Virus record (IMG/VR): IMGVR_UViG_3300001472_000039
Coordinates: 1 to 42,497 of that record
DNA length: 42,497 nt
Direction: 5' to 3' (one strand)
Source: a virus
The position numbers and the translations under genes were made by a program. Under the pieces are notes generated by a model, which saw only the letters and a list, made by a program, of their open reading frames with translations, searched no databases and was not told the origin of the DNA. Numbering within the stretch: the first letter of the stretch is position 1; each line of letters begins with the position of its first letter. Shown in pieces: positions 7,185 through 40,811 of the stretch.

Positions 7185-7206
7185 GTTATCAAAATAATTA
7201 GGTTAC
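7185..7206 (-). promoter_or_regulatory. GTWAC-N12-RTWAC element before the VGIG fibre gene
   Basis: On the minus strand GTAAC is followed after 12 nt by ATAAC, and the ATG comes immediately after. The 17-nt offset between arms matches four other late genes here. No Shine-Dalgarno is present. It could be a phage-specific promoter or operator; function not shown. Confidence 0.4.
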
Positions 7207-7232
7207 GTAAAAAGGCCAATCTTTTAGTTGGG

Positions 7233-7730
7233 TTAGATAAAGGTTATTACATCTGTTCCTATTGTTATGGTACCTGTGCTGAGCAGATGATCATAGGCTT
7301 CTTGTGATGCTTTAGTTATGGATATAGCCACATTGGTATATGTACCATCATTACTCACCTCTGATAGCTGATAGCTTATCTCAGTGGGTATGCTATAGGA
7401 GGTTAATATCAATGTAGAAGGAAACGGTGAAGATGTGCCTACTATTGATACCTTACCGACACTTGCCACAGCGTCATACTCCGGCTTATGAACATTGGCA
7501 GTGCCAAAAGAGTGTAGAGCATTACCTAGTAACTCCTCTAGAGTACCAAGATCGGTACTTATATTTTCTACCTCATTGTCAACATAGCCTTTTGTTGCTG
7601 CTCCTAGCCCTATAGTAGGACTCCCATTCAATATTAAAGATCCTGATAAAGTTCCTCCGTTTAGCGAGAGCCTTTCATTAACTAGCTGTTTTGTTGCTCT
7701 ACCTATGACGGTGAAAATTGAGTCATTCAT
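7233..7730 (-). CDS. Short fibre-module protein with docking-type N-terminus (165 aa)
   Basis: The first 25 residues (NDSIFTVIGRATKQLVNERL) resemble the N-termini of three nearby genes and probably form a common docking helix. Residues 22-50 (LSLNGGTLSGSLILNGSP, then ATKGYVDNEV) match the collar-like linker seen in many phage fibres, where a GG-x-LSG segment precedes a KGYVD strand. The C-terminal half looks like a small beta domain. It lies between two large fibre genes. An accessory fibre or fibre tip is the likely role. Confidence 0.7.
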   Translation of the reverse strand: MNDSIFTVIGRATKQLVNERLSLNGGTLSGSLILNGSPTIGLGAATKGYVDNEVENISTDLGTLEELLGNALHSFGTANVHKPEYDAVASVGKVSIVGTSSPFPSTLILTSYSIPTEISYQLSEVSNDGTYTNVAISITKASQEAYDHLLSTGTITIGTDVITFI

Positions 7731-7742
7731 AGTTAAAGATTC

Positions 7743-11427: not shown

Positions 11428-11670
11428 TTATGACCTATGTAAGTCAAAGTTTAGATTAAAAGTTACATCATCTCCGTACTCTGCACGGATTATATCTAGT
11501 CCGGCATCATCTACATATGGTAAGTCGTTCCAATTATTGAAGCCGTCACCTACCTTCATTCTCCTGTTAGTTAAATCCATTCCAATTTCACCTTGGTGTA
11601 AGGCAGGATTAACCTGACTCCAGGAACTAGCAGTATCGCGGCGCACCAAAATGCGTCTAAGAGTTGTCAC
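11428..11670 (-). CDS. Short fibre head of the MTD N-terminal type (80 aa)
   Basis: The 80-residue protein carries the signature RRDTASSWSQVNPALHQGEIG followed by MKVGDGFNNWNDLPYVDD. This matches the small beta head found at the N-terminus of major tropism determinant-like and many other phage fibres (RRDT...W..NP.L..GE.G...KxGDG...WN.LPY). Here it stands alone as a complete gene instead of heading a longer fibre. It overlaps the upstream gene by 4 nt (ATGA). It may be a free adaptor or the stump of a longer fibre. Confidence 0.75.
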   Translation of the reverse strand: MTTLRRILVRRDTASSWSQVNPALHQGEIGMDLTNRRMKVGDGFNNWNDLPYVDDAGLDIIRAEYGDDVTFNLNFDLHRS

Positions 11671-11912
11671 GCACCACCTCCATCAATTTCTAGAATATCT
11701 AAATGAATAGTGCCTGCACGTCCTCCATCAAGGGCTGCTTCTATAACTTCAGGAGACTGTGCTGTCCATAATCCTGAAAACGAGTTGTACTGAAGAACTC
11801 CTAAATTCTGTGGATTACTAACTGTGTCACTTAAGTCAACTAGCCTTAGGTCAGATATTCTCTTTTTCAGTAAAGAAAATTGATTCCCTATCTCTGACAG
11901 AATATTAGACAT
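11667..11912 (-). CDS. Small fibre-assembly/docking protein (81 aa)
   Basis: The N-terminus (SNILSEIGNQFSLLKKRISD) resembles the docking helices of the nearby fibre genes. The segment LVDLSDTVSNPQNLGVLQYN with WTAQSPEV is a common pattern in phage fibres, where LxDLxDV precedes a short beta hairpin ending in W. There is no Shine-Dalgarno; a GTTAC-N12-GTTAC element ends 9 nt before the ATG. Together with the next gene it may form a small connector in the fibre complex. Function inferred. Confidence 0.7.
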   Translation of the reverse strand: MSNILSEIGNQFSLLKKRISDLRLVDLSDTVSNPQNLGVLQYNSFSGLWTAQSPEVIEAALDGGRAGTIHLDILEIDGGGA

Positions 11913-11921
11913 AAAAATATT

Positions 11922-11943
11922 GTAACCTATTTAACTTTGTAAC
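11922..11943 (-). promoter_or_regulatory. GTTAC-N12-GTTAC element before the 81-aa docking gene
   Basis: Two GTTAC words on the minus strand, 17 nt apart, lie 9 nt before ATG 11912, where a Shine-Dalgarno would be expected but is absent. The sequence closely matches the copy at 40790-40811. Candidate phage promoter or operator. Confidence 0.45.
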
Positions 11944-12428: not shown

Positions 12429-14799
12429 GGACTACCTCCGATGTCATCTTTGTCCTGACTCCTGAAACCTCCAATGTTCTTCCTAGAACTTTGAAAGGCT
12501 GATCTAGCCCAGTTAACTTAATTGCATCTTGAAAATAATTACCCTGGGCAAAGACTGGAATCATAACCTCATTGCTTAAGTCCTCTAAATCCTGTGTCAC
12601 CTCCTCTACTTCAGTTTGCTGAGTCGTACTAAAGGTAGAAAGTTTAAAATTTGCCACGACAGAAATATCGGTAAAATTATCATCTACATAATCTCCAGTC
12701 ATATAGGTAGAGTAATCAAAAATGTCGGACATGTGTAAAGCGTAGGAACGCATCTTTTTTTCTGAAAACTTATCCTGAAGGTCAGTCTTTCCAAACTTTA
12801 GAATGCATTCATAATCGACTCCGTCCCTTGAGAACTCTCGGTATGGCCCGCGGAAAGCTTCGCTCGAACCATAGCCATACCTCATTATCATTGCGCCAAA
12901 ATTATAAGCTTTATTCGCTTCAGGCTCAATCGATTCGGAATCAATTCTAGAACTTACAGGTGCATAAGATACTACTCCCTCACTGCTAACTGACTTACTT
13001 AAGAAGTGAACTGCCATCATGAATCTTCTACTTTGAAATTCAGATGTAGGAAAAGTACTAACCATGGCAGTAAAAGCATGGTCTATCTGTGAGAGAGTTC
13101 CTTGAATTAAATCGTAAGCAATGACTCCCCAGTTCAACTGAATAGAACCCTCATTTTCAGTGTAGCCAATCGGAGAAACTAAGAAAATCTCTTGTGTTAA
13201 TGGGTTCTCACGTGAGTAAACATACTCCACCTCATCGTTTGTTATTAACCTCCAAAACTCTGGCCCCATCATAAATGTTGGAAACGGAACAGGCTCAACC
13301 GATGCAGGGCTAATTACATAGACTCCATTGAAACCTGCAAACATTTGTCTTTGTTCATCAATGTTAATAACGGTGTGCCTAAAGTCTGCCACTCTTTCAC
13401 CCTTGTATCTCTCTTCGTAATAAAATGCAGTATACTTATCCCCACGACTAACGGCTAAGTATCCAGTCTGCCTGTGAACCATTAGCTTGTCCCCTAGCTT
13501 TACCATCTTATTGATATTCGATCCATCCTCAGGGAATGCTATTGAATCCGATGATTCACGAGTCATCTCAGGATCTGCACTAAAAGTATCAGGCTCCTTG
13601 AGTAATATAAAATCAAGAGAGTCTCCAATTGCTACACTTTGAGTGGATTCCGACTCTGGGTCACCAGTGTTTGTAACTACTCCAGTAGAAGTGTTGTTAT
13701 ATGCTCCCTGTAAAACAATGAATGTTTTGCTTTGCAGCCAGTTGGAGCTTATTGAAACAACATCAGCATCGTAGACTTTGACTACTCCAGCTTGATCGGT
13801 AACGGTCATTCTAATTGAATCACCTGCAACAAATGTAGAGTGTTCGTAATTCAACAAAGCTAACTCTGTCGGTGTCATGGTATAGTAAGGATTATGAGTA
13901 AAGCTCTCATATCCTGATCCACTAGTGTCATTCGTGCCACCAAGAACATAGGGTAAAGTTATTGTCGTGATATTACCACTCTGCATTGCATTCACCTCAC
14001 CATTATATGTCTGCCCGAAAAGATTGGGCGCTGCCCTAGCCTCTCTCTGATCGTCTGCTAGCCTCCAAGCAGAGAACTCTATTATATGAGGGACTGTGTA
14101 GGTTGTAGTGTAGTGGAAATAATCAGAAAAGGATTCTGGTAAATAATATGGAAAGGAAGATGCTCCCATAAAATAACTGAAGTTGTTCTCTATTGTTTCA
14201 TCAAAGTACTCAACATCAGCAATAAATAATCTTCCGTCAAATTCAGATATTGTTCCCACTCTTACTATACCTCTTTCTCTAAGAGAGAATAATGGAAACG
14301 CGCACGGCCATCCATTTCTATAAAATAAGGGCAAGTCCACTCCATTGTTAAATATGCAGTACCCATCGATTGTGACCACTTCCCATCGTTTTGCTTTTAG
14401 TCCATAAAGCCCAGATGCATTAGTCATGGCCTGAGTGTAATTTATCTCATCTAAATTAAATAACTCTTCTGCTATAACCGACCAAGTGTGGGTTGACTCA
14501 CTAAATGAATAAAGCTTATCGCCAGCCCCTGCTACTAATATTTTTTCTCCTTCTGACTCGAACTGATGTAATAATCTAATTGGTGCATCATCAGTATCTA
14601 ATTTTGAAACATCATACCCACCTGAATTCACTCGACTCCAACCCTCTCTTCTTACTTCCCCATCAGTCTCTCTGCGGAAGTTAATCTTTTCAACATAGTT
14701 ACTTGCGCCAGCAGTGTCCTGAGAATTAGAGCCTGATATTAGTTGCCCACCCTCCGGCACCATTAAGGAGTAGTGTTTGTATGCCTTTTTTTTTGCCAT
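12418..14799 (-). CDS. Podovirus stabilisation/nozzle-like protein (793 aa)
   Basis: The N-terminus has the pattern of head-closure stabilisation proteins: YVEKINFRRETDGEVRREGW, then IRLLHQFESEGEKILVAGAG, DKLYSF and HTWSVIAEEL, followed by YCIFNNGVDLPLFYRNG. P22 gp10-like stabilisation proteins and other beta-propeller-like nozzle proteins share this order: rich in G/W strands, a 'refer to the map' box, then a long beta region. It lies between the coiled-coil protein and the fibre genes, as expected for the tail nozzle. Assignment is from motif pattern and synteny. Confidence 0.75.
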   Translation of the reverse strand: MAKKKAYKHYSLMVPEGGQLISGSNSQDTAGASNYVEKINFRRETDGEVRREGWSRVNSGGYDVSKLDTDDAPIRLLHQFESEGEKILVAGAGDKLYSFSESTHTWSVIAEELFNLDEINYTQAMTNASGLYGLKAKRWEVVTIDGYCIFNNGVDLPLFYRNGWPCAFPLFSLRERGIVRVGTISEFDGRLFIADVEYFDETIENNFSYFMGASSFPYYLPESFSDYFHYTTTYTVPHIIEFSAWRLADDQREARAAPNLFGQTYNGEVNAMQSGNITTITLPYVLGGTNDTSGSGYESFTHNPYYTMTPTELALLNYEHSTFVAGDSIRMTVTDQAGVVKVYDADVVSISSNWLQSKTFIVLQGAYNNTSTGVVTNTGDPESESTQSVAIGDSLDFILLKEPDTFSADPEMTRESSDSIAFPEDGSNINKMVKLGDKLMVHRQTGYLAVSRGDKYTAFYYEERYKGERVADFRHTVINIDEQRQMFAGFNGVYVISPASVEPVPFPTFMMGPEFWRLITNDEVEYVYSRENPLTQEIFLVSPIGYTENEGSIQLNWGVIAYDLIQGTLSQIDHAFTAMVSTFPTSEFQSRRFMMAVHFLSKSVSSEGVVSYAPVSSRIDSESIEPEANKAYNFGAMIMRYGYGSSEAFRGPYREFSRDGVDYECILKFGKTDLQDKFSEKKMRSYALHMSDIFDYSTYMTGDYVDDNFTDISVVANFKLSTFSTTQQTEVEEVTQDLEDLSNEVMIPVFAQGNYFQDAIKLTGLDQPFKVLGRTLEVSGVRTKMTSEVVHGS

Positions 14800-16373
14800 T
14801 ATGGGAACACATAGCCTGCTTGGGCATATGCCGTGTTTTCAAGTGTCGTAACTCTTGAAAGTAAATCGTTATATGCAGTAGTCATTGCATTATTCGATGC
14901 AATGAGAGTGTCGTAAGTAGCTTGAAATGCATCCAAGTTATTCTGAAATGTTACATCTTGGGATTCTAGCGTGGTAGCTCTAAGCTCAACCGTATCTATT
15001 AAGCCGTGTATATTACCTAGACTTACCACTACTCCGCTTAAATCTCCATCGTTGGCTGTAATTTGACCTTGGAGTAATCCAACTTGAGTAGTAAGGGCTT
15101 GAGCGGCGGAGGAATCATTTGAAGTTATGTGCTCCTGTAGTTCCTTTAAGGTATTGTATGCATCCCCTGCCCCATTTAGTAAACCGCTTATTTTAGTATC
15201 AGTATAGGTATTAGCAGAACTAAGCGTGGTTGCATCGTCTGCCCCAGCGTCTGCTCTAAGACTAGATACAGCGGCTAACGCATCTGTTCTGGTTGTGCTA
15301 ATCGATAACTTTAGGTTTGAATTTAAAGCTCCAATGCTAGCCTTGACCTCATTAATTCCTCCTTGAATAGAAACTCTTTTTAATTGTGAGTACAATCTAT
15401 TAAGTTCAACGGTAGAATTAGTATTATTTATGGAAACCTCTATCTCTGCCCTTGTCTGAGAAAGTTCACCTAGGATGCTAGTCTTGTCTGCAAAAAGAGA
15501 AGTCCTAACTTGTGAAATTGATACTTCTAGTTTCTGCCTTGCAAGATCAACAAATGGCTGAGCAATACTAACGATAGACTCACTGAATAAACTAACTTGA
15601 TCTGTCCTCCATCGTGCCACAATGAACTTCTGGTCAACCTCCTCCTTATCGTAGAAATTATCATACAGAGCAGTCTCAAAATCGAACTCTACTTTGCTGG
15701 CGTCAATCAAAGCCTGTGCTTCAACTTGGCTAATGAACAGACTCCCTAATCCAGAAATGTCTGATGCTGTATGCTGGTGGGACGCTGGAGCGTATACTGG
15801 AATATCACTAGCAGTTATGAAATCAGCAATACTTGATTTAGTCGCATATTCACTATGCGTGTGCGAAGAATCAGCCTTTGAGTTAGCTAAAATCTCAAGG
15901 TTTGCTTCTCGAGTATTAAGGTCTGCAATAGTTGCATAAGTTGAAGGTACGGCACTTATTGCTTGATCTGCAATGCTCCACTTTTCATTTAAATCATACG
16001 ATAAATTAGTAAAGTTACTCAGCAGTGTACCTAGTGAGCTTTCTAATTCCCGATGCTGGCTGTCACTAAGAATAGCTAAAGTCTGTATGCTAGAATTTAT
16101 TGAATTGGAAAGAGAAGAATCTGCTGCTTGAACTTCTGCAAGAGTAGGATGCTCACCAACATAATTATCTAGTTCATCCTTAGTTGTATTTGCTAATGCT
16201 TGAAGGGAAGCAATAGATGCATTTAGTGCAGTTATGTCGCTACCACTTGCTAATGCGCCACTTGCCACATCATCAGTAAGGTGAGCAAGACTATCTATTA
16301 GTGTGGTAAAGTCTGACTCTACGACAGATTGACCAGCAGAGAATTGAGCTTTTAATGTAGTTCTATTAGCCAT
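14799..16373 (-). CDS. Coiled-coil structural protein (524 aa)
   Basis: The protein begins with TTLKAQFSAGQSVVESDFTTLIDSL, a known phage fibre-head motif (LKAxFxxGxxxTxxxFxxLIDS). Most of the rest is long heptad coiled coil with Ala/Ser/Leu spacing and a few short beta turns (HSEYATKSSIADF). Low Cys and no membrane segment. It lies between the adaptor-like and nozzle-like genes, with TAATG coupling to the next gene. The likely role is a trimeric stalk or side-tail fibre joined to the neck. Confidence 0.75.
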   Translation of the reverse strand: MANRTTLKAQFSAGQSVVESDFTTLIDSLAHLTDDVASGALASGSDITALNASIASLQALANTTKDELDNYVGEHPTLAEVQAADSSLSNSINSSIQTLAILSDSQHRELESSLGTLLSNFTNLSYDLNEKWSIADQAISAVPSTYATIADLNTREANLEILANSKADSSHTHSEYATKSSIADFITASDIPVYAPASHQHTASDISGLGSLFISQVEAQALIDASKVEFDFETALYDNFYDKEEVDQKFIVARWRTDQVSLFSESIVSIAQPFVDLARQKLEVSISQVRTSLFADKTSILGELSQTRAEIEVSINNTNSTVELNRLYSQLKRVSIQGGINEVKASIGALNSNLKLSISTTRTDALAAVSSLRADAGADDATTLSSANTYTDTKISGLLNGAGDAYNTLKELQEHITSNDSSAAQALTTQVGLLQGQITANDGDLSGVVVSLGNIHGLIDTVELRATTLESQDVTFQNNLDAFQATYDTLIASNNAMTTAYNDLLSRVTTLENTAYAQAGYVFP

Positions 16374-17100
16374 TTCCTATAGTAAAGCCTCCCTCTCCTA
16401 GAGACTCGGTTGGGTTATTAGTGGTAAGTATTTCAGGTCGATTGACTGCAATTTTTCTGCGCTCTCTCTGATAGTTCTGTAAATTAGTCTGAGCTTGATT
16501 GGTATCATCGTTAACATCCTTTTCAAAATGATACTTTACGAAGTAATGAACGGCAAGCGCAGCATCATCACTTAAGTTAGTTTTGTACGCTTTTTGGTCA
16601 GGAGTGCATTCAAACATAGGCTTAAATGCATATTCTTGGTTGAACAATATACTTAATGTTTCATTGTCCTCTAAAATAGGTGCAGTGTAAAATTGACCAC
16701 GATCAAAAGTAATCTTCCCAGGGAAGTTAATTGACCTCTTCGCATGCCCACCATCTAGAATTGAATGTCTTTTGTAGGCAGAGTAAATATTTAATCGATA
16801 ATACTTTGATACAGTTTCATCACCTGTTGGTAATTGCCTAACCACTACATCCATAATTCTAGATGCTTCGATATCAAAATCTCCAACCTGACATTGTTTT
16901 TCACCATGCTCAGTTAGATCGGATGTAGTAAAATTAGCTTCGGTTGGTGTTGTTCTTAGCTCAGGTATATAAGACTGAAGGTCACGAACACCTGCCACGA
17001 TCATGCGATCACGAAATTTCTCTACTCCACGACCCCTTCTAAGGCCGTCTATAAGCAATAAATCATTTACCGTTTCGTTGAACTCGATCCACGTCTTCAT
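16366..17100 (-). CDS. Head-tail adaptor-like protein (244 aa)
   Basis: The N-terminal part (WIEFNETVNDLLLIDGLRRG, then RDRMIVAGVRDLQSYIPELR) resembles phage adaptor proteins, in which a helical start is followed by a strand rich in aromatic residues and KITFDRGQFYTAPIL-like beta strands. Residues 175-220 (YFVKYHFEKDVNDDT, LQNYQRERRKI) form a helix suited to ring packing. Its place before the coiled-coil and nozzle genes matches a gatekeeper or tail-adaptor role in podoviruses. It overlaps the lipoprotein gene by 38 nt, so the true start could lie a little downstream. Confidence 0.65.
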   Translation of the reverse strand: MKTWIEFNETVNDLLLIDGLRRGRGVEKFRDRMIVAGVRDLQSYIPELRTTPTEANFTTSDLTEHGEKQCQVGDFDIEASRIMDVVVRQLPTGDETVSKYYRLNIYSAYKRHSILDGGHAKRSINFPGKITFDRGQFYTAPILEDNETLSILFNQEYAFKPMFECTPDQKAYKTNLSDDAALAVHYFVKYHFEKDVNDDTNQAQTNLQNYQRERRKIAVNRPEILTTNNPTESLGEGGFTIGNG

Positions 17101-17506
17101 TGATAATTCCTAGCATTTCGAGAGTCTTCTTACACTTAATCCTAGTGTAAAAAATTGTTCCTCCCACAAGTAATAAAATAATTAGACCGACAATCTTCAC
17201 GGTATTCCAAATGCCATCTTCAATCTGCTGTAAGATTCCCTTCTGTCCTTTTCGCTCAATCTCAAGTAATTTTTCTACATCACCATGCGAAAGAGCCTCA
17301 ATAGTCTCCTTGGCTTCTGTCAATTCTTCATCTCCCTTAGCTATTTCTCCTGTTGCCCATCCTGCACCTGCGCCAAGACCAGCTGTCACCGGGCCACCTA
17401 ATGATCCTGCCGAACCACCGACCATAGCTCCACCAAGCGGATAGAATTTTTTTAGCGAGCAGCTCGTAAACAAGAACAGCATAATACTATAAATCAGATA
17501 CCTCAT
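17063..17506 (-). CDS. Phage lipoprotein with glycine zipper and membrane segment (147 aa)
   Basis: The N-terminus is a clear lipoprotein signal: a positive Arg, a hydrophobic core, and a lipobox FTSC with the modified Cys at about residue 16. Residues 25-58 form a glycine zipper with GxxxG spacing (GGAMVGGSAGSLGGPVTAG). A charged helix follows, then a hydrophobic segment near residues 103-121 (VGLIILLLVGGTIF). It could be a spanin, a superinfection-exclusion lipoprotein or a membrane factor for DNA entry. Its location among virion neck genes is unusual. Lipidation is established for the motif; the exact role is unknown. Confidence 0.75.
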   Translation of the reverse strand: MRYLIYSIMLFLFTSCSLKKFYPLGGAMVGGSAGSLGGPVTAGLGAGAGWATGEIAKGDEELTEAKETIEALSHGDVEKLLEIERKGQKGILQQIEDGIWNTVKIVGLIILLLVGGTIFYTRIKCKKTLEMLGIINEDVDRVQRNGK

Positions 17507-17509
17507 TTA

Positions 17510-18481
17510 TCATGATCTATAGTATCCTGATACATCTCCAGATACGGAAAATTCATCGAGTGAACGATGGCAAAAATATTCTTTAGTAGTTCCTGCAATT
17601 AAAACTTCTGATCGATCTGATTGAGTATAAACCTCAAGGGAATCCACGGTTTGTACCCCTGCCCCCTCAGAAGCTACAGCTATTACATAGTCTGGATCAT
17701 TTAAAATTTCGCTAAGTAACCCAACGCCATGGGATGTCCAAGACTCTACAGGATTACCAGATAGAGAATAAGAGTCAAACGATGGAACTAGATCAACATA
17801 ACCTCCAGCTTCATACCGCTGTACGCTAATTGAGAAATCAACTCCATTAGTTCCGATAGTTGCACGATGCCATTTGTTTAACTGAACAAGTTCGTTCTGT
17901 ATTGGAATATGATCATTATAACCAACCCTCACCTTTAAGCTTAAGTCAGGCAAAACCCTTATAGCTGCAGCAGGATGATTAATATCTATGCTTGCCCTAT
18001 TATTATATATCCCAAGAGGTGTAAGCTCGGAATCTACGGAACTCATTTTGAAATAAATAACATAGGTTAAGTTAGATTGATTAGCCAAAACTGGAACTGT
18101 TGTAAAAACAGCAGTATCATCTGTGTGGGTAACTTGTAAAACCTGTGAATTACCTAAAGGCGTTTCATCCATTAAGGTCTTCATGTTTAGACTGGGAGAG
18201 TCTGGTATTACCCCAACACTAGTCTCATCAAAGTATCGAGAATGTATTATACTTTTTTGACTTACATCAATATTGCTAGAACCCGAATTTGTAAGTCGGA
18301 AGGACTTGGCATTAATTGATGGTAGCGGTGCAACAAGTGGGTGTGAATTAGTTGAAAAAACACCACTTCTAGCAGGTTGATTAGTTACTACCAATCGACC
18401 ATCTGATACTGCTACTAAAGGATCAAAGTCATCTGAGGAAAACTTATCTCGACCATAGGATTTTAAATCAATAGTTTTCAT
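17510..18481 (-). CDS. Lectin-like beta-sandwich protein (323 aa)
   Basis: The protein is beta-rich with few charges and many Ser/Thr/Asn residues. The central region (LTYVIYFKMSSVDSELTPLG, NKWHRATIGTNGVDFSISVQ) follows the concanavalin A/LamG-like pattern, where a 'W-H-x-a-t-i' strand is followed by a strand of small residues. No catalytic motif was seen. It lies between the holin candidate and the lipoprotein gene in the late operon. It could be a decoration protein of the head or a carbohydrate-binding tail part. The lectin fold is inferred from the strand pattern only. Confidence 0.6.
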   Translation of the reverse strand: MKTIDLKSYGRDKFSSDDFDPLVAVSDGRLVVTNQPARSGVFSTNSHPLVAPLPSINAKSFRLTNSGSSNIDVSQKSIIHSRYFDETSVGVIPDSPSLNMKTLMDETPLGNSQVLQVTHTDDTAVFTTVPVLANQSNLTYVIYFKMSSVDSELTPLGIYNNRASIDINHPAAAIRVLPDLSLKVRVGYNDHIPIQNELVQLNKWHRATIGTNGVDFSISVQRYEAGGYVDLVPSFDSYSLSGNPVESWTSHGVGLLSEILNDPDYVIAVASEGAGVQTVDSLEVYTQSDRSEVLIAGTTKEYFCHRSLDEFSVSGDVSGYYRS

Positions 18482-21008: not shown

Positions 21009-21030
21009 GTAACTAAGATTAATAAGTTAC
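21009..21030 (-). promoter_or_regulatory. GTAAC-N12-GTTAC element before the capsid gene
   Basis: On the minus strand GTAAC and GTTAC lie 17 nt apart and end 8 nt before ATG 21000. The two arms are inverted, and with flanks they form an 8-bp inverted repeat TTGTAACT/AGTTACAA. No Shine-Dalgarno is present. Candidate strong late promoter or operator. Confidence 0.45.
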
Positions 21031-25306: not shown

Positions 25307-25315
25307 ATGTCTTTT

Positions 25316-25337
25316 GTAACCCAAAAGGTTAGGTTAC
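25316..25337 (-). promoter_or_regulatory. GTAAC-N12-GTTAC element before the acidic head gene
   Basis: On the minus strand GTAAC and GTTAC lie 17 nt apart and end 9 nt before ATG 25306, in the gap after the large-terminase stop at 25338. No Shine-Dalgarno. The arms extend as inverted GTAACC/GGTTAC. Candidate late promoter. Confidence 0.45.
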
Positions 25338-26876
25338 TCAAGCATTAATTTCTATTATACTTGAGGTTTTCACATTAGCATATGGTGTTCCTGATTTAAC
25401 ATCATAATACATAATTGGATATGTCAGTGCATCGAAGGCATGAATATAGACTGAACGCCTTGGTTTTAAGCCTAGTGTAGGGTCATACTTGCCATCTTTT
25501 TGTTTTTCTGAAGAAAGGTGACGAATACTTTTTAAAGACTCAGTGCATTGGGCTGAAAATATTATTTCCTCCTGCACAAGTTTGGCAATCATTAGCCTCA
25601 CCCTACCCTCGACTGAACCTTGGAATTTTGGAGCTGCCTTCATACGAATAGGCTCAAGGTCAAAATGGTCACACTTCTCCTTTGATATTTCCTCAAAGTC
25701 TCGAACATCGTAGGATCCTGTTTTTGCTCGGTACTGGTTGAAAGCTGAGTTATCTGAAATGTGTACGAATTTTAGCTTTTGACCGACACGTTCATTCCAA
25801 TATGCCATCTTCCTGTATATAAGAGGGATTATTGTGGTGTAAGGAATCTTCTTATTTATAGTAACTAATTCATCAAATACCGTCCAAATCGATTTCTCTT
25901 TCCCAATCAGGCACTGCATAAATATCATCGCATTGTTTACTGCCCCAGGGTCATATCCAATTATTACAGGAAAACTTGGGTTGGGAACTATTCCCTTTCG
26001 AGAATCACCTACGACATGTAAAGGTTTTGAAAAGTACGGAGCTAATATAGCATCGCCCGATGGTCTATCTACCCACTCACCCTCAAGCATTCGTTTTGCT
26101 TCAATTGGGTCATTAGAAACCGCTTCCATAACTCGGTCATAGTAACCCTCGGGTAAGTTATCTACATTCTCGGCAATCCTAACATGTACTACATGGTAGG
26201 CTTTATTGTAATTACCGTATTCATCTAATGGTGACTCAAAGAATCTTTTGTACACCCAGTGAGACGGGCCACTCGGATTGCAGGCAGCGCAGTATTGTTG
26301 ACAGCCCTCAATTCCTTGACGCCTTCCCAACTGCTGAACGATGGCATTGAAATAAGCCGGAGACTCTAGGTTTGTTAGCTCATCCACGAAAACATAGCTA
26401 GGCTCAAAACCTTTTATTCGATCAGACAAAATGTTCCCAAATGGTGCAGACATAAGACTTATTCTAGACCAACCACCATATCGGTTCTGCACATCAATAT
26501 ATGGTGCTTTCTGTAAATCCATTTTCTCGTCCGTATGCTCAAGCCCAAGACCCTCTTTCCACTCAGGTAATATTTCTGTCTGCAATTTATGCCAAACTCC
26601 CCCTTGGGTTGCTTGTGACTTAACTCCAACAACTATTAAACACAGAGCATTGAAATTCTCATAGGCATGACGAACCAATTTATGACCACCTAATACAAAA
26701 GTTTTACCCGATGCTCTTTCTCCATAGGCAAGGACATACTTAGCTCTGCTCTCAAATAATTCCTGCTGGCTTCCAGATAGTGAAGGACTCCATGGTTCCT
26801 GCTCTACTTGCTCTTCTTCTTCTTCGTCAAAAGCACCAAGAAAAGCCTTAGGATCAATCTTCTTCAGCCTTGGCAT
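25338..26876 (-). CDS. terL: Large terminase subunit (512 aa)
   Basis: The ATPase/nuclease motor that packages phage DNA into the prohead through the portal. Walker A is GERASGKT at residues 52-59 and Walker B is YVFVDELT at residues 161-168. The C-terminal RNase H-like nuclease domain shows the expected acidic residues: GYDPG near residue 300, ISDNSAF in the middle, and HAFDALTYPIMYY near the end. Length matches TerL. It overlaps the small terminase gene by 23 nt, as is common for the pair. Confidence 0.95.
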   Translation of the reverse strand: MPRLKKIDPKAFLGAFDEEEEEQVEQEPWSPSLSGSQQELFESRAKYVLAYGERASGKTFVLGGHKLVRHAYENFNALCLIVVGVKSQATQGGVWHKLQTEILPEWKEGLGLEHTDEKMDLQKAPYIDVQNRYGGWSRISLMSAPFGNILSDRIKGFEPSYVFVDELTNLESPAYFNAIVQQLGRRQGIEGCQQYCAACNPSGPSHWVYKRFFESPLDEYGNYNKAYHVVHVRIAENVDNLPEGYYDRVMEAVSNDPIEAKRMLEGEWVDRPSGDAILAPYFSKPLHVVGDSRKGIVPNPSFPVIIGYDPGAVNNAMIFMQCLIGKEKSIWTVFDELVTINKKIPYTTIIPLIYRKMAYWNERVGQKLKFVHISDNSAFNQYRAKTGSYDVRDFEEISKEKCDHFDLEPIRMKAAPKFQGSVEGRVRLMIAKLVQEEIIFSAQCTESLKSIRHLSSEKQKDGKYDPTLGLKPRRSVYIHAFDALTYPIMYYDVKSGTPYANVKTSSIIEINA

Positions 26877-27525
26877 CTGCTTGCATTTCTTTGAGTGGTC
26901 TGAACCCAGGCTTACGCTTATCTTCCTTTTTGTCTTTTTCGGACATCTTAATCATTAAATCCAACCCATGTAGCAACCTGTCGTAAAACTTGCCTTGTTG
27001 CTCAGCCGTTTGAAGAAATAATTTAGTCCTTAATAATTCTTCCTCAGGATCTAATCCACCGCCAGAGATATCGTCCCTTAATTTCTCTGCTACCTCGAAC
27101 AAAGCCATATTCTGACGAATCGCAATCTTTTGTGTTACCTCTAGGGCATTGGACATCAAGCGTCCTATACCTCCCTGTAAGTTCTCAAATACTTTTAGCT
27201 TCTCAATATTGTCAGGATTTTTAAGCATCCCTTCGATATCGTTCATGAAGACTTCTTTGCCGTTTTTCTTTAAAGCTCCAATAAAATCCTTATGGCTTGG
27301 AGCTTCCGGCGGTTCCGATCTAGCCATTAACTCAACTTCGGTTGGAGCATGACCTTGCTCTCCAGCAACCTGCCATAAAGCTTTAAGCTTCGGGTCACGC
27401 CTCACCTTCTCACGAAGGTTATGCTCACCTATACCTAATTCCTTAGATGCCGATCCGTAGTTTCCATCATGCTTACGCATGAGGGTAGCCAGCTCATCGG
27501 TGCTATACTTTCTGCGTCTGGGCAT
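26854..27525 (-). CDS. terS: Small terminase subunit (223 aa)
   Basis: The DNA-recognition partner of the packaging motor. Residues 6-50 form a helix-turn-helix (YSTDELATLMRKHDGNYGSA, ASKELGIGEHNLREKVRRDP), the usual N-terminal domain of TerS. The middle and C-terminal parts are helical and charged (LEVTQKIAIRQNMALFEVAE), suited to ring oligomerisation. It is directly upstream of and overlaps the large terminase gene. Assignment rests on the HTH, size and synteny. Confidence 0.8.
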   Translation of the reverse strand: MPRRRKYSTDELATLMRKHDGNYGSASKELGIGEHNLREKVRRDPKLKALWQVAGEQGHAPTEVELMARSEPPEAPSHKDFIGALKKNGKEVFMNDIEGMLKNPDNIEKLKVFENLQGGIGRLMSNALEVTQKIAIRQNMALFEVAEKLRDDISGGGLDPEEELLRTKLFLQTAEQQGKFYDRLLHGLDLMIKMSEKDKKEDKRKPGFRPLKEMQADAKAEED

Positions 27526-27895
27526 TGAAAAAAGACATTAACATTGGCTTATACTTTTTGCCCCAATCCGAACTAGATCGAAGATAAGCAAAGCTGCCAT
27601 TAGAAGCTAAAGCGTAGGCTGAGTTTCGTACCTGCCAGTCAAATAAATCAAAATTGCACCCTAGACAGAAACTCTTAGCTTCACCTACTTCCACATCATT
27701 CCAGTTGTGCCTCGAGCTAAGACTCTTAACTCGGTCAATGTCTAGCTCTGAGTTGATTGCAATTTCTTCGTCAGATAAAACTCTAACAACACTCGTTTTT
27801 CCGTTACTATTTAAAATTCTTTCCCTAGCAAGTAGCCTTACAAAAATAGGAGGGAACTCATCGAATACTGCCCAGCCTTTACGGATTTTTCTCAT
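27503..27895 (-). CDS. Phage protein of unknown function upstream of terminase (130 aa)
   Basis: It overlaps the small terminase gene by 23 nt and the next small gene by 17 nt, so it is part of the packaging operon. The segment VVRVLSDEEIAINSELDIDR followed by VKSLSSRHNWNDVEVGEAK resembles a small helix-turn-helix: the order 'lsdeEIA..s.ld..rVk.ls....W..v' is the usual pattern of a DNA-binding helix pair. Two Cys lie in FCLGCNFD. It might assist packaging-site choice. Function not recognised. Confidence 0.65.
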   Translation of the reverse strand: MRKIRKGWAVFDEFPPIFVRLLARERILNSNGKTSVVRVLSDEEIAINSELDIDRVKSLSSRHNWNDVEVGEAKSFCLGCNFDLFDWQVRNSAYALASNGSFAYLRSSSDWGKKYKPMLMSFFNAQTQKV

Positions 27896-29633: not shown

Positions 29634-29667
29634 GTACATTTACCTAACTCATAATCCGGTCAGACTA

Positions 29668-29713: not shown

Positions 29714-29881
29714 GAAATTAGGTTTTTGGAAGATTTAAGAACCCTTTATTGATCACGATTTCAGCCGATTCTGGAACCATTAAGGGGGGGACTATAGGGG
29801 GGGATTAAGGAGGTTCTCCTGCATAGCATAAAGTAAAGTATATATATTAAAGGAATAGCATATATACAAGGGAGAGGATTG

Positions 29882-30196
29882 TTAAGGAGAGGGATGTTTT
29901 TTTATCCACTTACCATTGTACCAATGCCAGCCTTCTTGTTTGAGCTTAGTGGCATAAATTTTTCTAGTTTGTTCAAGTTGATTAATCCGATTCTCGTAAA
30001 CATCTGAAGTTCCTCCTTTCTCATTTGGGAAAAACTTGAAAATCAAAATAGCTGTAATGAAAATTCCAATAAGAACTCCAAGCCAAAAATTCCTTGATCG
30101 ATAAAACCCCGTAGTCGGGATATCAAAACTAAGCACGGGCTTATCAAATTCAACATAACGAGTTTCACCTCGTAGTTTTACTTCAATTTCTTTCAT
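29882..30196 (-). CDS. Small single-pass membrane protein (104 aa)
   Basis: The N-terminal 30 residues are soluble and beta-like (IEVKLRGETRYVEFDKPVLS). Residues about 36-55 form one membrane helix (WLGVLIGIFITAILIFKFF). The C-terminus is charged and aromatic (QEGWHWYNGKWIKKHPSP). It follows the regulator-like 74-residue gene directly (TAAATG). Lysogeny-region location suggests a membrane factor expressed from the prophage, for example exclusion of other phages. No family was recognised. Confidence 0.65.
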   Translation of the reverse strand: MKEIEVKLRGETRYVEFDKPVLSFDIPTTGFYRSRNFWLGVLIGIFITAILIFKFFPNEKGGTSDVYENRINQLEQTRKIYATKLKQEGWHWYNGKWIKKHPSP

Positions 30197-30421
30197 TTAT
30201 AGTTTTTGTCCTTTTTTAAAATCCAAAGCGTAGCGTCCTACCGCAATCCACTTTGGCATCGTTGGTTCTTGTTGTGTGAGTAATTGAATTGCCACCTCCA
30301 TGGAATTTTGCGCGAAATTATTAATTGGTATGCCCTCCAACTTCTCGCAAAGTTCTGATATTCTAGAGTAGAGTTCAGGGCTAACTCTAACTCCGATTGA
30401 TTTTTCTAATTCTTTTTTCAT
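30197..30421 (-). CDS. Small ribbon-helix-helix-like protein (74 aa)
   Basis: ATG at 30421 is preferred over an upstream extension to 30475, which adds Cys/Lys-rich sequence unlike a real N-terminus. The pattern KSIGVRVSPELYSRISELCE followed by KLEGIPINNFAQNSMEVAIQ is typical of ribbon-helix-helix DNA-binding proteins: a basic beta strand, a helix, a turn, then a second helix. It is the first gene left of a divergent control region, so it is a candidate lysogeny or excision regulator. The target is unknown; direct repeats at 30539 and 30559 are possible operators. Confidence 0.6.
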   Translation of the reverse strand: MKKELEKSIGVRVSPELYSRISELCEKLEGIPINNFAQNSMEVAIQLLTQQEPTMPKWIAVGRYALDFKKGQKL

Positions 30422-30474
30422 CTTACATAGTTTGTTTGTTTTTTTGATGCAATACTTAGGCAGAAGCTCACACA

Positions 30475-30503
30475 TAAAAATGTAAAAATAAGTAACATGT
30501 CAA
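30475..30503 (-). promoter_or_regulatory. Possible leftward promoter in the divergent control region
   Basis: On the minus strand a perfect TTGACA (-35, 30498-30503) is followed after 17 nt by TTTTTA (30475-30480). The -10 match is weak. It would drive the ribbon-helix-helix gene. Confidence 0.35.
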
Positions 30504-30538
30504 TACTTTTTATCATTTTATTACACTCAATTATAGAG

Positions 30539-30569
30539 TTTGCTATTTTATTTTGCATTTTGCTATTTT
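30539..30569 (+). repeat. Direct 11-bp repeats, possible operator
   Basis: TTTGCTATTTT occurs at 30539-30549 and again at 30559-30569, a 20-bp spacing (two helical turns), between the divergent genes. This is operator-like, although the DNA is very T-rich. Confidence 0.4.
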
Positions 30570-30610
30570 TTTTCTTTTCTTGTAAATCAATATCCGCTAA
30601 AACCTTGAGC

Positions 30611-30823
30611 ATGAGTGAAAAAAGTGGTGATAAAAAAATAAGATTGGACGAAACATTAAGCCTTAGCGAAGCTGCTATGGTCTTAAAATTCGACTCCTTC
30701 CGATCAATTAATGAATTGATTCGTAAGAAAAAGTTGAAAAGTTTTCGCACTCCATACAGCCGAAATAAACGCGTCCTCAAATCTGAAGTTGAGGCATTAA
30801 CCATTATGGAGGAAATCAGCTAA
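30611..30823 (+). CDS. Small winged-helix/excisionase-like DNA-binding protein (70 aa)
   Basis: The ATG at 30611 was chosen because the longer frame from 30497 adds a T-rich, artificial hydrophobic start. The segment LSLSEAAMVLKFDSFRSINE followed by LIRKKKLKSFRTPYSRNKRV matches the MerR/excisionase type: a helix-turn-helix that begins with 'ls.seAA..L', then a wing with basic residues and a terminal V-L-K-S-EVEAL helix. It is the first gene of the early operon, upstream of the recombination genes. It may be an early regulator or Xis. Confidence 0.65.
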   Translation: MSEKSGDKKIRLDETLSLSEAAMVLKFDSFRSINELIRKKKLKSFRTPYSRNKRVLKSEVEALTIMEEIS

Positions 30824-31296
30824 TGTGTTTAGAAAAGCAATTTAAAGAACCTTTTGCGGCCAACGTCATTCATTGGCGTCCAGGATCGACCAACAAGGAT
30901 AAAACAAAATGCATAGCATTAGCTTACGTTGATGCCAGAGATGTTATGAAACGTCTCGATGAAGCAGTTGGCCCTGAGAATTGGAAAGATTCATACGAGG
31001 AATTTTCTTCAGGAAGATTAATTTGCACTTTATATATTCGCATCGATGGTGAATGGATAGGGAAAGCAGATGGTGCAGGAGATTCTGCAATTGAAGGTGC
31101 AAAGGGCGGAATAAGTGATGCATTGAAAAGAGCAGCTGTACGATGGGGAATCGGAAGATACCTTTATTATTTACCTGTGAAGTGGGTAGAAATGAATAAG
31201 TATCGCCAAATCGAGAACCCTCCTACCCTTCCCTCGTGGGCATTACCTAAGAATCTTACTTCCGAAAAGAAAGCAGAGCTTACAGGATGGCAATAA
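30823..31296 (+). CDS. Rad52/22-like single-strand annealing protein (157 aa)
   Basis: The protein has the hallmarks of the phage Rad52/Sak annealing family: CIALAYVDARDVMKRLDEAV with GPENWKDSYEEF, then LYIRIDGEWIGKADGAGD and a helical GAKGGISDALKRAAVRWGIG followed by RYLYYLP. Size is typical. It would anneal single strands in phage recombination, working with the exonuclease encoded by the next, overlapping gene. A GGAGG Shine-Dalgarno lies upstream. The pair is a phage equivalent of Red beta and exo. Confidence 0.9.
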   Translation: MCLEKQFKEPFAANVIHWRPGSTNKDKTKCIALAYVDARDVMKRLDEAVGPENWKDSYEEFSSGRLICTLYIRIDGEWIGKADGAGDSAIEGAKGGISDALKRAAVRWGIGRYLYYLPVKWVEMNKYRQIENPPTLPSWALPKNLTSEKKAELTGWQ

Positions 31297-32369
31297 CTAA
31301 GGACGAGAGAGCATGGAAGGGAACTCCCAAGATGTCGGGAAGTTCTGTTTTTGAGAACATGCTTTGCCTAGCTCGCTTTAATGCTAGTAAGAAATTTAAA
31401 GACTATGACACATCTGATGCTACGACGGGGACAATGCTTCATGAGCATATGGAAAACGGAACTGACATTGATGAAATCCCTGATCCTAGCGATCAGTTCA
31501 TCATTAGAGAGTGCCGTAGAATGGAAGAAAGTGTAACCAAGAAATTTGGGTTGTGTGGTGTAGTTAGTAGAGAGCCTCGTTTATGGTTATATGACGAGAA
31601 AGGTGAGGATGGCATTCTCTCTGGTCAGATTGATCGGTTAGAAATTGACGGAGAGAATGCCTCCATCATTGACTACAAAATGCTGTATGGTGCTTATGAA
31701 CCAGCTCACAAAAACAAACAGCTACAAGTATATGCTACTCTAATCTTCGAGAATTACCCCGAGGTGCAAGTAATTCAATTAGCATTACTACAACCTGCTT
31801 TGGGCAAGATGACCACAGGTGTTATGCACCGAGACTTAGGCTTAATGCTTAAAAAGTTAATTCAGGAGCTAGCAGAAAAAGTTGAGGATGAAGATGCCAA
31901 AGCTACTGCCGGCCCGAAACAATGTAAATACTGCAAGGCATTGGCACACTGCCAAACTGCCTACGAATACTTAAAAAATGAAACCAAAGAGATTGATATG
32001 GAAAATATTTCAAATGAAGAATTGTCTGAAAAGATGGGGCTTGTCGGGCTTATTGAGCGTTTTGGCAAGAGTGTTAAATCTGCCCTTAAGGGGCGTCTTG
32101 AGGCTGGTGTTGATGTTCCTGGGTACAGGTTGCGTAATACTGGAAAAACTACGTCGTTTGATGCAGTGGGGGCATCAAAAATTCTTTTCAGCGCAAATCT
32201 TCCTATCGAGGACTTTATTAAAGCTACGAAAATATCGGAGCCGGACTTAGTTACCATTTGGTCAGAATACACTGGTCAGAAAAAAGGTGATGCCCGAAAA
32301 GACCTTCGTCAGAAGCTAGAGCAAGTAATGTTTCAAAAGGATAAGGCTAAGTCCGTTTCAGCAGAATGA
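31287..32369 (+). CDS. PD-(D/E)XK nuclease, recombination exonuclease (360 aa)
   Basis: A RecB-like nuclease domain. After an N-terminal helical part (GSSVFENMLCLARFNASKKF) lie the active-site region ILSGQIDRLEIDGENASIID with YKM, giving the D-x(n)-D-x-K order, and LQVYATLIFENYPEVQVIQL. A CKYCKALAHCQTAYEY cluster could bind a metal or Fe-S group, as in Cas4/AddB-like exonucleases. It overlaps the Rad52-like gene by 10 nt. The pair probably resects and anneals phage DNA. The C-terminal 120 residues are helical and may serve for partner binding. Confidence 0.85.
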   Translation: MAITKDERAWKGTPKMSGSSVFENMLCLARFNASKKFKDYDTSDATTGTMLHEHMENGTDIDEIPDPSDQFIIRECRRMEESVTKKFGLCGVVSREPRLWLYDEKGEDGILSGQIDRLEIDGENASIIDYKMLYGAYEPAHKNKQLQVYATLIFENYPEVQVIQLALLQPALGKMTTGVMHRDLGLMLKKLIQELAEKVEDEDAKATAGPKQCKYCKALAHCQTAYEYLKNETKEIDMENISNEELSEKMGLVGLIERFGKSVKSALKGRLEAGVDVPGYRLRNTGKTTSFDAVGASKILFSANLPIEDFIKATKISEPDLVTIWSEYTGQKKGDARKDLRQKLEQVMFQKDKAKSVSAE

Positions 32370-38289: not shown

Positions 38290-38470
38290 GAGCCATAGCC
38301 TCCCTTACTGCTTCTTCTAAGGTATTAAAACCTCCTGATGCGTTATTCCATTTATCTTCCGAGAATTGGATTTCTTCTTCCTCTACGAATACGCTTAATC
38401 CTTTTGAGCTTATCCGAAGCTCCCCATCCGAATGGTCTTCCATAATAGTTTCTTCCCCAGCATTTGTCAT
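38276..38470 (-). CDS. Small acidic protein, overlapping gene (64 aa)
   Basis: The acidic start (GEETIMEDHSDGELRISSKG) and a helical end (NTLEEAVREAMARARS) make a plausible small protein. The ATG lies inside the Cys-rich gene, with an overlap of 119 nt in a different frame, unusual here. A later start (ATG at 38443) would shorten it. No function recognised. Confidence 0.45.
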   Translation of the reverse strand: MTNAGEETIMEDHSDGELRISSKGLSVFVEEEEIQFSEDKWNNASGGFNTLEEAVREAMARARS

Positions 38471-38729
38471 AAATTATATTACTAAAAGGTACATAGCACC
38501 CACATCCCCTACCCGATCCGTTAAATGGTCGGCATCTTTTTAATTCTGCATCATATATCGGGCATTTAAGGCATATCTTGAACCTTCTCTTCCATTCATT
38601 GATGTCTTCGGCTGATTTGAATGATATATAGGGCAAAACCTTGGATATACCTAAAAATATACGATAAGTAGCCAGTAGGCTTGGGTTTTCTATACGAAAC
38701 ACCCTAATAAACTCTTTTATGCGCTTCAT
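38352..38729 (-). CDS. Cys-rich zinc-binding-like phage protein (125 aa)
   Basis: Residues 50-92 hold KICLKCPIYDAELKRCRPF, then GSGRGCGCYVPFSNIIYDKC W. Six Cys (53, 56, 66, 76, 78, 90) in the order CxxC...C...CxC...C fit a known phage/prophage family with a probable metal-binding core. The first 45 residues are hydrophobic and aromatic. The C-terminus is basic and may be an overlap tail. It starts within the stop of the 687-residue gene (4-nt overlap), so it is co-transcribed. Its role is not known. Confidence 0.65.
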   Translation of the reverse strand: MKRIKEFIRVFRIENPSLLATYRIFLGISKVLPYISFKSAEDINEWKRRFKICLKCPIYDAELKRCRPFNGSGRGCGCYVPFSNIIYDKCWGRNYYGRPFGWGASDKLKRIKRIRRGRRNPILGR

Positions 38730-40789
38730 GCAAAGGCTTTGTCGCCTTTCTTGTACTCAAATTCGGCTGTTTCTTCAGGTTCTTTAAATATATCTTCTCG
38801 CTCACCTTGAAATGCAACATTACTAGATGCCGAGTCTTGATCAACTTGCGGGCCGGCACCAGCAATAGTGTCTATATGATCATAGACCTTTGGTGAAGCA
38901 GCTCTTCTTACACCACTTGGATTTCCTTGGTTCTGAGCAATGGATGAAACCAAATTACTCTTATCAGCATCAGATGATTTAAAAGCAGGTGTATTTTGAC
39001 CCAATCCAGAACCACCTCCGACTATGTTTAAGTCTTTTAGTCTTCTAGCTAATGCATCCTCACCAAATTCCTCAGCATAACTATCCCTACCATCTGATTC
39101 AGTTAAATCATATTGTGAGCCACCCTCACTGATACTTCCTCCACTTCCCTTGCCTGTTGGTATGTTAGATTTCGATGAATTACTGCCTTTATCTATTTTA
39201 CCAGTGTTTCTGATTGGTATGCTCTTACGTGCTTTAGTACTACTAGAACCTTTTCTTTGTCCTCTGTTCCCTGATCCACCCTTGCCTCCGACACTTAACC
39301 TAAGTTCATCAATTCCGGCAACATCCACAAGACCACTAACTAATGGACTGGCTAAGTTACCTAATATATTAAGTGGTGCGCCCAATAACCCTAAAGCACT
39401 ACTCTTAGCCATATCCATATCGCCATATGCTAAGCCCTGACCCACTCTAGCTAAAGAGTCAGGCATACTCAATACGTTTCCAAGTAAACTAGTTTTGTTA
39501 CTATCTCCAAATAAATAATCCCCAGTGCCATCCACTAAATTTCCAAAATTCAGAATGCCATTACCTATTTTGTTATCTCCAACCATTTGACCAACTGAAC
39601 TAAGACCCCCACCAATCAAGTCAGTTGTCCAGTTTAACGGCTTTAGAAGCATACCTCCAATATTTCTTACACCATCTGTGAAGTCATCAACACGAGATGC
39701 CATAGTAGGTTGAGGTGTGTACCTCTGCCCAGGAATCATCTGATTAGGCTCTCCCCTACTATTTGTTCCGTATTTATCTGCTGCAATTTTACTTAGCATT
39801 GGAGAACGGGCAAGATCACCAGCAGTCAAGGGATTCTGAGAAACAAAACCTTCTGGGGTTTGGTAATTCATTGCCTGTCCCATTGTCTGTGTCTGCTGGG
39901 GAAAAACATAGCCACCATTAGTAGCAGGATCCGACACATAACCATTAGCACCAACAGAACCAAGGTAATTACTAGCCATACTACCCAAGAACGGCACTTT
40001 ACCATTAGGCCCAGCAACATATGCCCCCTGGGGAATGTATTCAGGTGAAGTAGGATCAGCATAAACTGTACCTCCCATGGTTTCATACGGATATGCGCCA
40101 ATAGGTAAATCAGGAGTGCTATAATCCTCAATATATTGAGTATCGTATACTCCATACGATTCATCAGGAGTAGTTAAGTCAAATCTGTCCAAATCTGCAT
40201 CCGCAGCGGCTGAAAGTTGACCCGCAAGGTCTAAAATTTCCTTACGTTCGTATGCAGACAGATCAGTGTTGTTTGCCGCTTCAGTTAACTTAGCTATAGC
40301 CTCATTTGTATCAAGGGCATTGACTGTACCATCATCATTGTAGCTAATTAATCCGTAATCATCTAAATAATTCTTCTCGTTCGGATTAATAGAGGTTATG
40401 TCCTCAAGCATTGCTGCTTCTTCGTTAGTATAACCTAGTGCAGGGTCAAAAAAATCAGTATTTATGAAATCTTCTTCTTTATTAAAGTTGTTTTCCCACC
40501 AACTAGAGTCATATCCCCCCTCACTGTTAAGTACACCATCTAGCCAGTTAAATGTATCCGGCTGTTCCCCAAACAAACCCTCCTGCACACTAGGATCAAG
40601 GATGTAGTTTTGTTTAGGTACATTATAGTCCCTAAATAGATTTTGATTGGCACTTAAGGTTTCAGCGAAATTATAATTACCATCACCTCCAAAGGTTCTA
40701 CCAGCCCAAGTGTCTTTAAACATATCTCGTGGCTCATATGCAGTAACTCCATCGTAATGACCTCCTCCACTGTCCGCTTTTATTTGCAT
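38726..40789 (-). CDS. Large virion/ejection-like protein (687 aa)
   Basis: Residues 1-320 are acidic, Asn/Tyr/Gly-rich and soluble. Residues 375-495 contain long hydrophobic, glycine-spaced stretches (LIGGGLSSVGQMVG, SSALGLLGAPLNILGNLASP), as in internal virion proteins that cross membranes during DNA ejection. Residues 500-550 are basic, Gly/Ser/Lys-rich. Composition matches the large late proteins at the other end of the window. It lacks a Shine-Dalgarno, and a GTTAC-N12-GTTAC element touches its ATG. Structural or ejection role is inferred. Confidence 0.7.
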   Translation of the reverse strand: MQIKADSGGGHYDGVTAYEPRDMFKDTWAGRTFGGDGNYNFAETLSANQNLFRDYNVPKQNYILDPSVQEGLFGEQPDTFNWLDGVLNSEGGYDSSWWENNFNKEEDFINTDFFDPALGYTNEEAAMLEDITSINPNEKNYLDDYGLISYNDDGTVNALDTNEAIAKLTEAANNTDLSAYERKEILDLAGQLSAAADADLDRFDLTTPDESYGVYDTQYIEDYSTPDLPIGAYPYETMGGTVYADPTSPEYIPQGAYVAGPNGKVPFLGSMASNYLGSVGANGYVSDPATNGGYVFPQQTQTMGQAMNYQTPEGFVSQNPLTAGDLARSPMLSKIAADKYGTNSRGEPNQMIPGQRYTPQPTMASRVDDFTDGVRNIGGMLLKPLNWTTDLIGGGLSSVGQMVGDNKIGNGILNFGNLVDGTGDYLFGDSNKTSLLGNVLSMPDSLARVGQGLAYGDMDMAKSSALGLLGAPLNILGNLASPLVSGLVDVAGIDELRLSVGGKGGSGNRGQRKGSSSTKARKSIPIRNTGKIDKGSNSSKSNIPTGKGSGGSISEGGSQYDLTESDGRDSYAEEFGEDALARRLKDLNIVGGGSGLGQNTPAFKSSDADKSNLVSSIAQNQGNPSGVRRAASPKVYDHIDTIAGAGPQVDQDSASSNVAFQGEREDIFKEPEETAEFEYKKGDKAFA

Positions 40790-40811
40790 GTAACTTATAT
40801 TACTTGGTAAC
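40790..40811 (-). promoter_or_regulatory. GTTAC-N12-GTTAC element before the 687-aa gene
   Basis: Two GTTAC words on the minus strand, 17 nt apart, end directly at ATG 40789. The sequence closely resembles the element at 11922-11943. No Shine-Dalgarno. A candidate promoter or operator shared with the main late operon. Confidence 0.45.

What the first reader, a model, noticed from the sequence alone, without database searches (positions are those of the whole stretch)
7185..40811. A repeated GTWAC-N12-GTTAC element sits just before five late genes that lack Shine-Dalgarno sequences
On the minus strand, two GTTAC-like words exactly 17 nt apart occur at 7185-7206, 11922-11943, 21009-21030, 25316-25337 and 40790-40811. 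Each ends 0, 9, 8, 9 or 0 nt before an ATG. These five genes (VGIG fibre, docking protein, capsid, acidic head protein, 687-aa protein) all lack a clear Shine-Dalgarno, while other late genes such as those at 494 and 3683 have one. The copies at 11922 and 40790 are also alike between the arms. The layout suggests a phage-specific promoter giving leaderless or near-leaderless mRNAs, or an operator. A standard -35/-10 spacing does not fit, so an unusual sigma factor or a phage RNA polymerase encoded outside the window is possible.
Basis: partly seen in the sequence, partly recalled or inferred. Interest (0 to 1): 0.65.

Follow-up and report, generated by a model that had tools for sequence, protein, structure and literature searches.

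The report
Phage operator sites on leaderless promoters
An undescribed family of temperate phages carries a paired 22-base DNA word directly before the start codons of many of its genes, including the capsid gene; it looks like the binding site of a regulator lying across promoters whose mRNAs begin at or near the start codon.

Summary
All five copies are at the stated places (5 places found, about 0.24 expected), 0, 9, 8, 9 and 0 nt before an ATG. The window is part of a 77-kb temperate phage whose circular map is held. The same GTWAC-N12-GTWAC element recurs at homologous places in relatives down to about 62% terminase identity. In 17 contigs (809 kb) the N12 spacing occurs 78 times, against 0-17 for other spacings; 57 of the 78 lie directly before an ATG. 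It is a palindrome (window clade: GTAACCTAA-N4-TTAGGTTAC) with clade-specific inner bases. The middle W bases do not co-vary, so it is DNA, not an RNA hairpin. Best reading: an operator lying over sigma70-type leaderless promoters before many late and middle genes. The regulator is unidentified: the control-region ribbon-helix-helix-like protein is disfavoured, a universal predicted helix-turn-helix protein beside the terminase is a weak candidate. Repression rather than activation is inferred.

The parts
7185..7206 (-). palindromic element, 0 nt before ATG of the 893-aa fibre-like gene (4503-7184)
   Evidence: conserved in G002 and G003 as GTAACCTAATTATCTTGATAAC directly before ATG
7191..7196 (-). 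-10-like TATTTT, 6 nt before ATG of the fibre gene
7214..7219 (-). -35-like TTGGCC, 17 nt upstream of TATTTT
11922..11943 (-). palindromic element, 9 nt before ATG of the 81-aa gene (11667-11912); overlaps the end of the upstream gene
   Evidence: conserved in G002-G005, G020 and in G025
11919..11924 (-). -10-like TACAAT, 6 nt before ATG of the 81-aa gene
21009..21030 (-). palindromic element, 8 nt before ATG of the 625-aa presumed capsid gene (19123-21000)
   Evidence: conserved in G002-G007, G020
25316..25337 (-). palindromic element behind the terminase stop, 9 nt before ATG of the 90-aa gene (ATG at 25306)
   Evidence: an element is recognisable at this place in most of about 90 relatives
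25313..25318 (-). -10-like TACAAA, 6 nt before ATG
25336..25341 (-). -35-like TTGAGT (contains the terminase stop TGA), 17 nt upstream
40790..40811 (-). palindromic element, 0 nt before ATG of the 687-aa gene (38726-40789)
   Evidence: related element at 0-4 nt in G005, G003, G020, G036
40797..40802 (-). -10-like TAATAT, 7 nt before ATG of the 687-aa gene
40820..40825 (-). -35-like TTGCAG, 17 nt upstream
31533..31554 (+). related palindrome GTAACCAAGAAATTTGGGTTGT inside the exonuclease gene; role unclear
27503..27895 (-). 130-aa protein with predicted helix-turn-helix, upstream of the terminase genes, universal in the family; weak candidate for the regulator
30197..30475 (-). small ribbon-helix-helix-like control-region protein; considered as regulator and disfavoured

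Best explanation
The element is a dyad-symmetric operator for a dimeric (or dimer-of-dimers) regulator, probably phage-encoded. It lies across the spacer and -10 region of sigma70-type promoters whose transcripts begin at or within a few nt of the start codon. This arrangement heads many late and middle transcription units of the phage but not the replication operon. Host RNA polymerase would read the promoters, and the regulator would block it (most likely) or license it, switching the units together. Shown by sequence statistics: the element, its conservation, its place before ATG, the -35/-10 signal and the missing Shine-Dalgarno. Inferred: leaderless mRNA, binding by a protein, its phage origin, and repression as the sign.
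For: Only the 12-nt spacing is enriched, 78 places in 809 kb, and 57 of them are directly before an ATG. Homologous genes keep the element across the family with clade-specific inner bases. The two W positions combine freely (A/A 22, A/T 16, T/T 12, T/A 6), which fits a DNA site and not an RNA stem. TAnnnT ends 6-7 nt before ATG in 20 of 47 sites against 4.5% of 538 other genes, TTG lies 17 nt upstream of the -10 in 32% against 2%, Shine-Dalgarno 0 of 47 against 27%. A hold-out set of weaker sites gives 9 of 32. The -10 position follows the ATG and not the palindrome, and the site behind the terminase is inverted in one lineage, as tolerated for an operator that only has to overlap the promoter.
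Against: No transcript data and no binding data. 27 of 47 sites lack TAnnnT at 6-7 nt, and the capsid site has only a poor -35/-10. Many sites are homologous to each other, so they are not fully independent. The regulator is not identified. Sites are missing at the replication operon, which an immunity repressor would be expected to control. Part of the hexamer signal comes from the fixed letters of the element. The gap to ATG never falls far below zero, which an operator placed freely would not require.
Confidence: 0.58

Rival explanations
1. The 22-bp element is itself the promoter of an alternative sigma factor or of a phage RNA polymerase, with transcription starting at its downstream edge.
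For: Tight placement 0-12 nt before ATG and no other placement; clade D is directional, the half away from the gene being better in 22 of 25 sites.
Against: No RNA polymerase or sigma gene recognised; the sigma70-type signal tracks ATG rather than the element; near-palindromic symmetry and one inverted copy; the distance to ATG varies.
Confidence: 0.15
2. The element is the binding site of a late activator that recruits host RNA polymerase, in the manner of P2 Ogr or P4 Delta.
For: Sites at late and middle genes and not at the replication operon; -10 and -35 hexamers are often poor.
Against: The site overlaps the -10 and spacer in varying register instead of sitting at a fixed distance upstream of -35.
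Confidence: 0.17
3. It is an RNA hairpin in the 5' leader used for translational control.
For: It covers the Shine-Dalgarno region, and the best copies could fold.
Against: 34 of 56 non-redundant sites have A-A or T-T at the middle pair and inner pairs are often broken.
Confidence: 0.04
4. It is a recombination or partition site that happens to lie before genes.
For: Inverted arms, two tyrosine recombinases in the genome, one inverted copy.
Against: Almost all copies abut start codons with promoter signals; no rearranged blocks bounded by sites were noticed in the comparisons.
Confidence: 0.04

Closest known systems
Cluster A mycobacteriophage (L5, Bxb1) immunity repressor with stoperators
   Same: 20-30 copies of one word across a temperate phage genome, with motif drift between relatives (PMC6550527)
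   Different: Those are 13-14 bp sites without dyad symmetry, bound by a monomer, mostly not promoter-associated and oriented with transcription; here a 22-bp palindrome lies over promoters next to ATG, and the operator type does not follow the exchanged control-region protein
Leaderless genes of bacteria with a TAnnnT box about 12 bp upstream of the start codon
   Same: TAnnnT 6-7 nt before ATG and no Shine-Dalgarno (PMC3160421)
   Different: Here a conserved palindrome overlaps the box, and the genes include phage capsid and other virion genes
P2 Ogr / P4 Delta late promoters (from memory)
   Same: A dyad with a 12-nt gap at several late promoters
   Different: As remembered, those sit near -55 and the words differ; these overlap the -10 region
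P1 C1 repressor operators (from memory)
   Same: One operator word at many operons of a temperate phage
   Different: As remembered, P1 sites are asymmetric and also control early functions
T7-type phage RNA polymerase promoters (from memory)
   Same: About 22 bp long, scattered before late genes
   Different: Not palindromic, and they need a phage polymerase, none recognised here

Membership tests
Leaderless sigma70-type promoters | TAnnnT ending 6-7 nt before ATG | tested here: met
   43% of 47 sites against 4.5% of other genes; hold-out 28%
Leaderless sigma70-type promoters | No Shine-Dalgarno | tested here: met
   0 of 47 against 27%
Leaderless sigma70-type promoters | -35-like TTG about 17 nt upstream of the -10 | tested here: met
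   32% against 2% as a set; the capsid site in the window does not show it
Leaderless sigma70-type promoters | Transcript 5' end at the start codon | not testable with these tools
   no RNA data
Phage-wide operator regulon | One dyad-symmetric word at many transcription units | tested here: met
   about 16-18 places per complete genome
Phage-wide operator regulon | Identified DNA-binding regulator | tested here: inconclusive
   ribbon-helix-helix-like protein disfavoured; 130-aa protein a weak candidate
Immunity repressor operators | Operator type changes together with the control-region repressor | tested here: not met
   G028 and G013 share 65% identical control-region proteins but have different operator types
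Immunity repressor operators | Sites at the early lytic (replication) operon start | tested here: not met
   none upstream of Erf in G001, which has a Shine-Dalgarno
Stoperators | Asymmetric 13-14 bp site | tested here: not met
   22-bp palindrome
Phage RNA polymerase promoters | Phage-encoded RNA polymerase gene | tested here: inconclusive
   no motif-B match and no family hit, but not all proteins were searched and a very diverged enzyme is not excluded

The most novel reading that the evidence does not exclude
A large undescribed phage family expresses its capsid and most middle and late genes from leaderless mRNAs under one palindromic operator, whose sequence has drifted clade by clade together with a new kind of regulator (possibly the 130-aa helix-turn-helix protein beside the terminase) that is separate from the freely exchanged immunity module.
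Probability: 0.3. Interest if true: 0.68.

Novelty: new variant of a known kind. Interest (0 to 1): 0.52.

Why it matters
It predicts, from sequence alone, the regulatory map of a phage family whose capsid and portal proteins find no relative among 50,697 annotated phage records. It suggests that virion genes, which must be made in quantity, can be made from leaderless mRNAs. The clade-by-clade drift of the operator gives a natural series for finding the cognate regulator and for studying how operator and protein change together.

Tried and rejected
A motif scan for RNA polymerases in complete genomes found nothing convincing. An RNA hairpin was rejected on base-pair counts. The ribbon-helix-helix-like protein was proposed as regulator, because each GTWAC word is itself symmetric, and then disfavoured: G028 (operator type GTAACACGA) carries one 65% identical to that of G013 (type TGACCTAA), members of one operator type carry ones only 35-45% identical, and G007 has window-type operators but a foreign copy. 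A Foldseek search of its model was uninformative, so the fold name rests on a sub-threshold Pfam hit (HicB) and the look of the sequence. Sequence searches of solved structures with both candidates gave nothing. The perfect window-type palindrome occurs in only one viral contig, the same phage, and the 58%-clade form in three, so it is no general phage or host element at that stringency. Clades with 70-76% terminase identity (G008-G011, G022, G023) and G026/G031 have diverged elements that I could not define well. The host could not be found.

Full report
Observation. None of the five genes has a Shine-Dalgarno, while other late genes have one.

Context. The window is a fragment of a temperate phage. 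IMG/VR contig 3300025137_000026 (76,944 bp, here G001) is the same phage, circularly permuted and 99.99-100% identical over the shared parts, so a map of about 77 kb is known. It encodes two tyrosine integrases, Erf, exonuclease, RusA, DnaB, SSB, an SNF2-type helicase, a C5 methylase, a peptide deformylase, terminase, portal and a 3682-aa protein. A stretch that looks like the 3' end of a tRNA, with CCA, lies beside integrase 1 and is probably attP. Two terminase searches gave 88 viral loci. Portal and capsid find no relative in 50,697 phage records. The host is unknown.

The element in relatives. At homologous genes (after terminase, capsid, 81-aa, fibre, 687-aa) relatives with 83-94% terminase identity carry the same element. 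Just behind the terminase stop it is recognisable in most loci down to about 62% identity, for example GTAACACTAAAACATAAGTTAC or GTTACTAATTAAAATCAGTAAC. At 58-60% it is TGACCTAA-N4-TTAGGTCA-like, which keeps the core ACCTAA-N4-TTAGGT of the window clade. Large contigs of 56-81 kb in the clades that keep the exact spacing hold 4-10 exact copies; with weaker copies, complete genomes hold about 13-18 places each, against 0-2 hits in shuffled sequence. In 809 kb only the N12 spacing is enriched, with 78 places, and 57 precede an ATG of an open frame.

Symmetry. GTWAC reads the same on both strands and the two W positions combine freely. This points to a DNA site read by a dimer at each word, or by a dimer across the dyad, and not to an RNA stem. 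In the window lineage the site behind the terminase is inverted relative to its neighbours, so orientation seems not to be critical. In clade D the half away from the gene is nearly always the better one (22 to 1), as expected if the gene-side half must also serve as a -10; in clade A the difference is small (7 to 3).

Promoters. Aligned on ATG, the sites show T at -12, A at -11 and T at -7. TAnnnT ends 6 or 7 nt before ATG in 20 of 47 sites against 4.5% of other genes; TTG lies 17 nt further up in 32% against 2%; Shine-Dalgarno 0 of 47 against 27%. A hold-out set of 32 weaker sites gives 9 of 32 at 6-7 nt. Dropping the post-terminase sites, whose TTG comes from the terminase stop codon, leaves 15 of 36, with TTG starting 35-36 nt before ATG in 10 of 36. 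In the window the 893-aa gene has TTGGCC-N17-TATTTT-N6-ATG, the 90-aa gene TTGAGT-N17-TACAAA-N6-ATG and the 687-aa gene TTGCAG-N17-TAATAT-N7-ATG. In bacteria, TAnnnT about 12 bp upstream of the start codon is taken as the mark of leaderless genes (PMC3160421). The position of the hexamer follows the ATG and not the palindrome, which is why I read the palindrome as an operator over a promoter and not as the promoter.

Which genes. In G001 sites head late genes (46169, 61642, 65949, 75036, 2819, 14602, 26091) and, on the other strand, middle units (32440, 34516, 37815, 40545, 43504, a weak one at 34100 before the methylase gene, and a variant with a 15-nt gap before integrase 2). In clades A, C and D a site or a diverged palindrome also lies before the small gene that starts the terminase operon. 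The replication operon start has none and has a Shine-Dalgarno.

Regulator. The ribbon-helix-helix-like control-region protein occurs about once per genome wherever that region is covered, but its exchange between lineages does not carry the operator type with it, so it is probably not the regulator. The 130-aa protein beside the terminase is universal, is predicted with good confidence (pLDDT 87) and contains a helix-turn-helix-like region; it weakly resembles restriction-modification controller proteins (E=0.056, TM 0.37-0.54). It travels with the terminase, so its co-occurrence with operator type is not independent evidence. A host protein is also possible.

Verdict. The element is real, conserved and looks functional. 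The reading as an operator over sigma70-type leaderless promoters is well supported statistically but untested; the sign of control and the regulator are open. Interest 0.52, new variant of a known kind.

Noticed in passing
window 25316-25337; L006-L014, L029, L085, L089-L094: The element behind the terminase is inverted (about 27 bp, CTTTTGTAACCCAAAAGATTAGGTTAC) in the window lineage relative to its sister lineages, with the flanks unchanged.
   Followed up: partly
window 31533-31554; G005 25249; G025 39578; G027 52188: A related palindrome lies inside the exonuclease coding region in two clades; it may be a second kind of site or only protein coding constraint.
   Followed up: no
window 28189-28233: A tRNA 3' end with CCA (tRNA-Leu by eye) directly upstream of integrase 1, probably the attP core; it could identify the host.
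   Followed up: no
G001 14633-25681: A 3682-aa open frame without any Pfam or PHROG match worth naming, with diverged relatives in all large genomes; preceded by an element 9 nt before its ATG.
   Followed up: partly
window 30197-30804 and G025 41172-41780: The control region holds a ribbon-helix-helix-like gene divergent from a small helix-turn-helix gene at the head of the replication operon, and the pair is exchanged between lineages.
   Followed up: partly
G027, upstream of the ribbon-helix-helix-like gene (54.7 kb): Short direct repeats (TGAAGT copies) lie between the divergent control genes, possibly the true immunity operators.
   Followed up: no
G001 27820-28860 and 28895-31381: A second tyrosine recombinase and an SNF2-type helicase are neighbours in all the large genomes compared; the recombinase gene often has its own element.
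   Followed up: no
L085-L087: Three related phage contigs are binned into a MAG named as an uncultured archaeon, although the phage carries bacterial-type genes such as peptide deformylase; probably a binning artefact.
   Followed up: no
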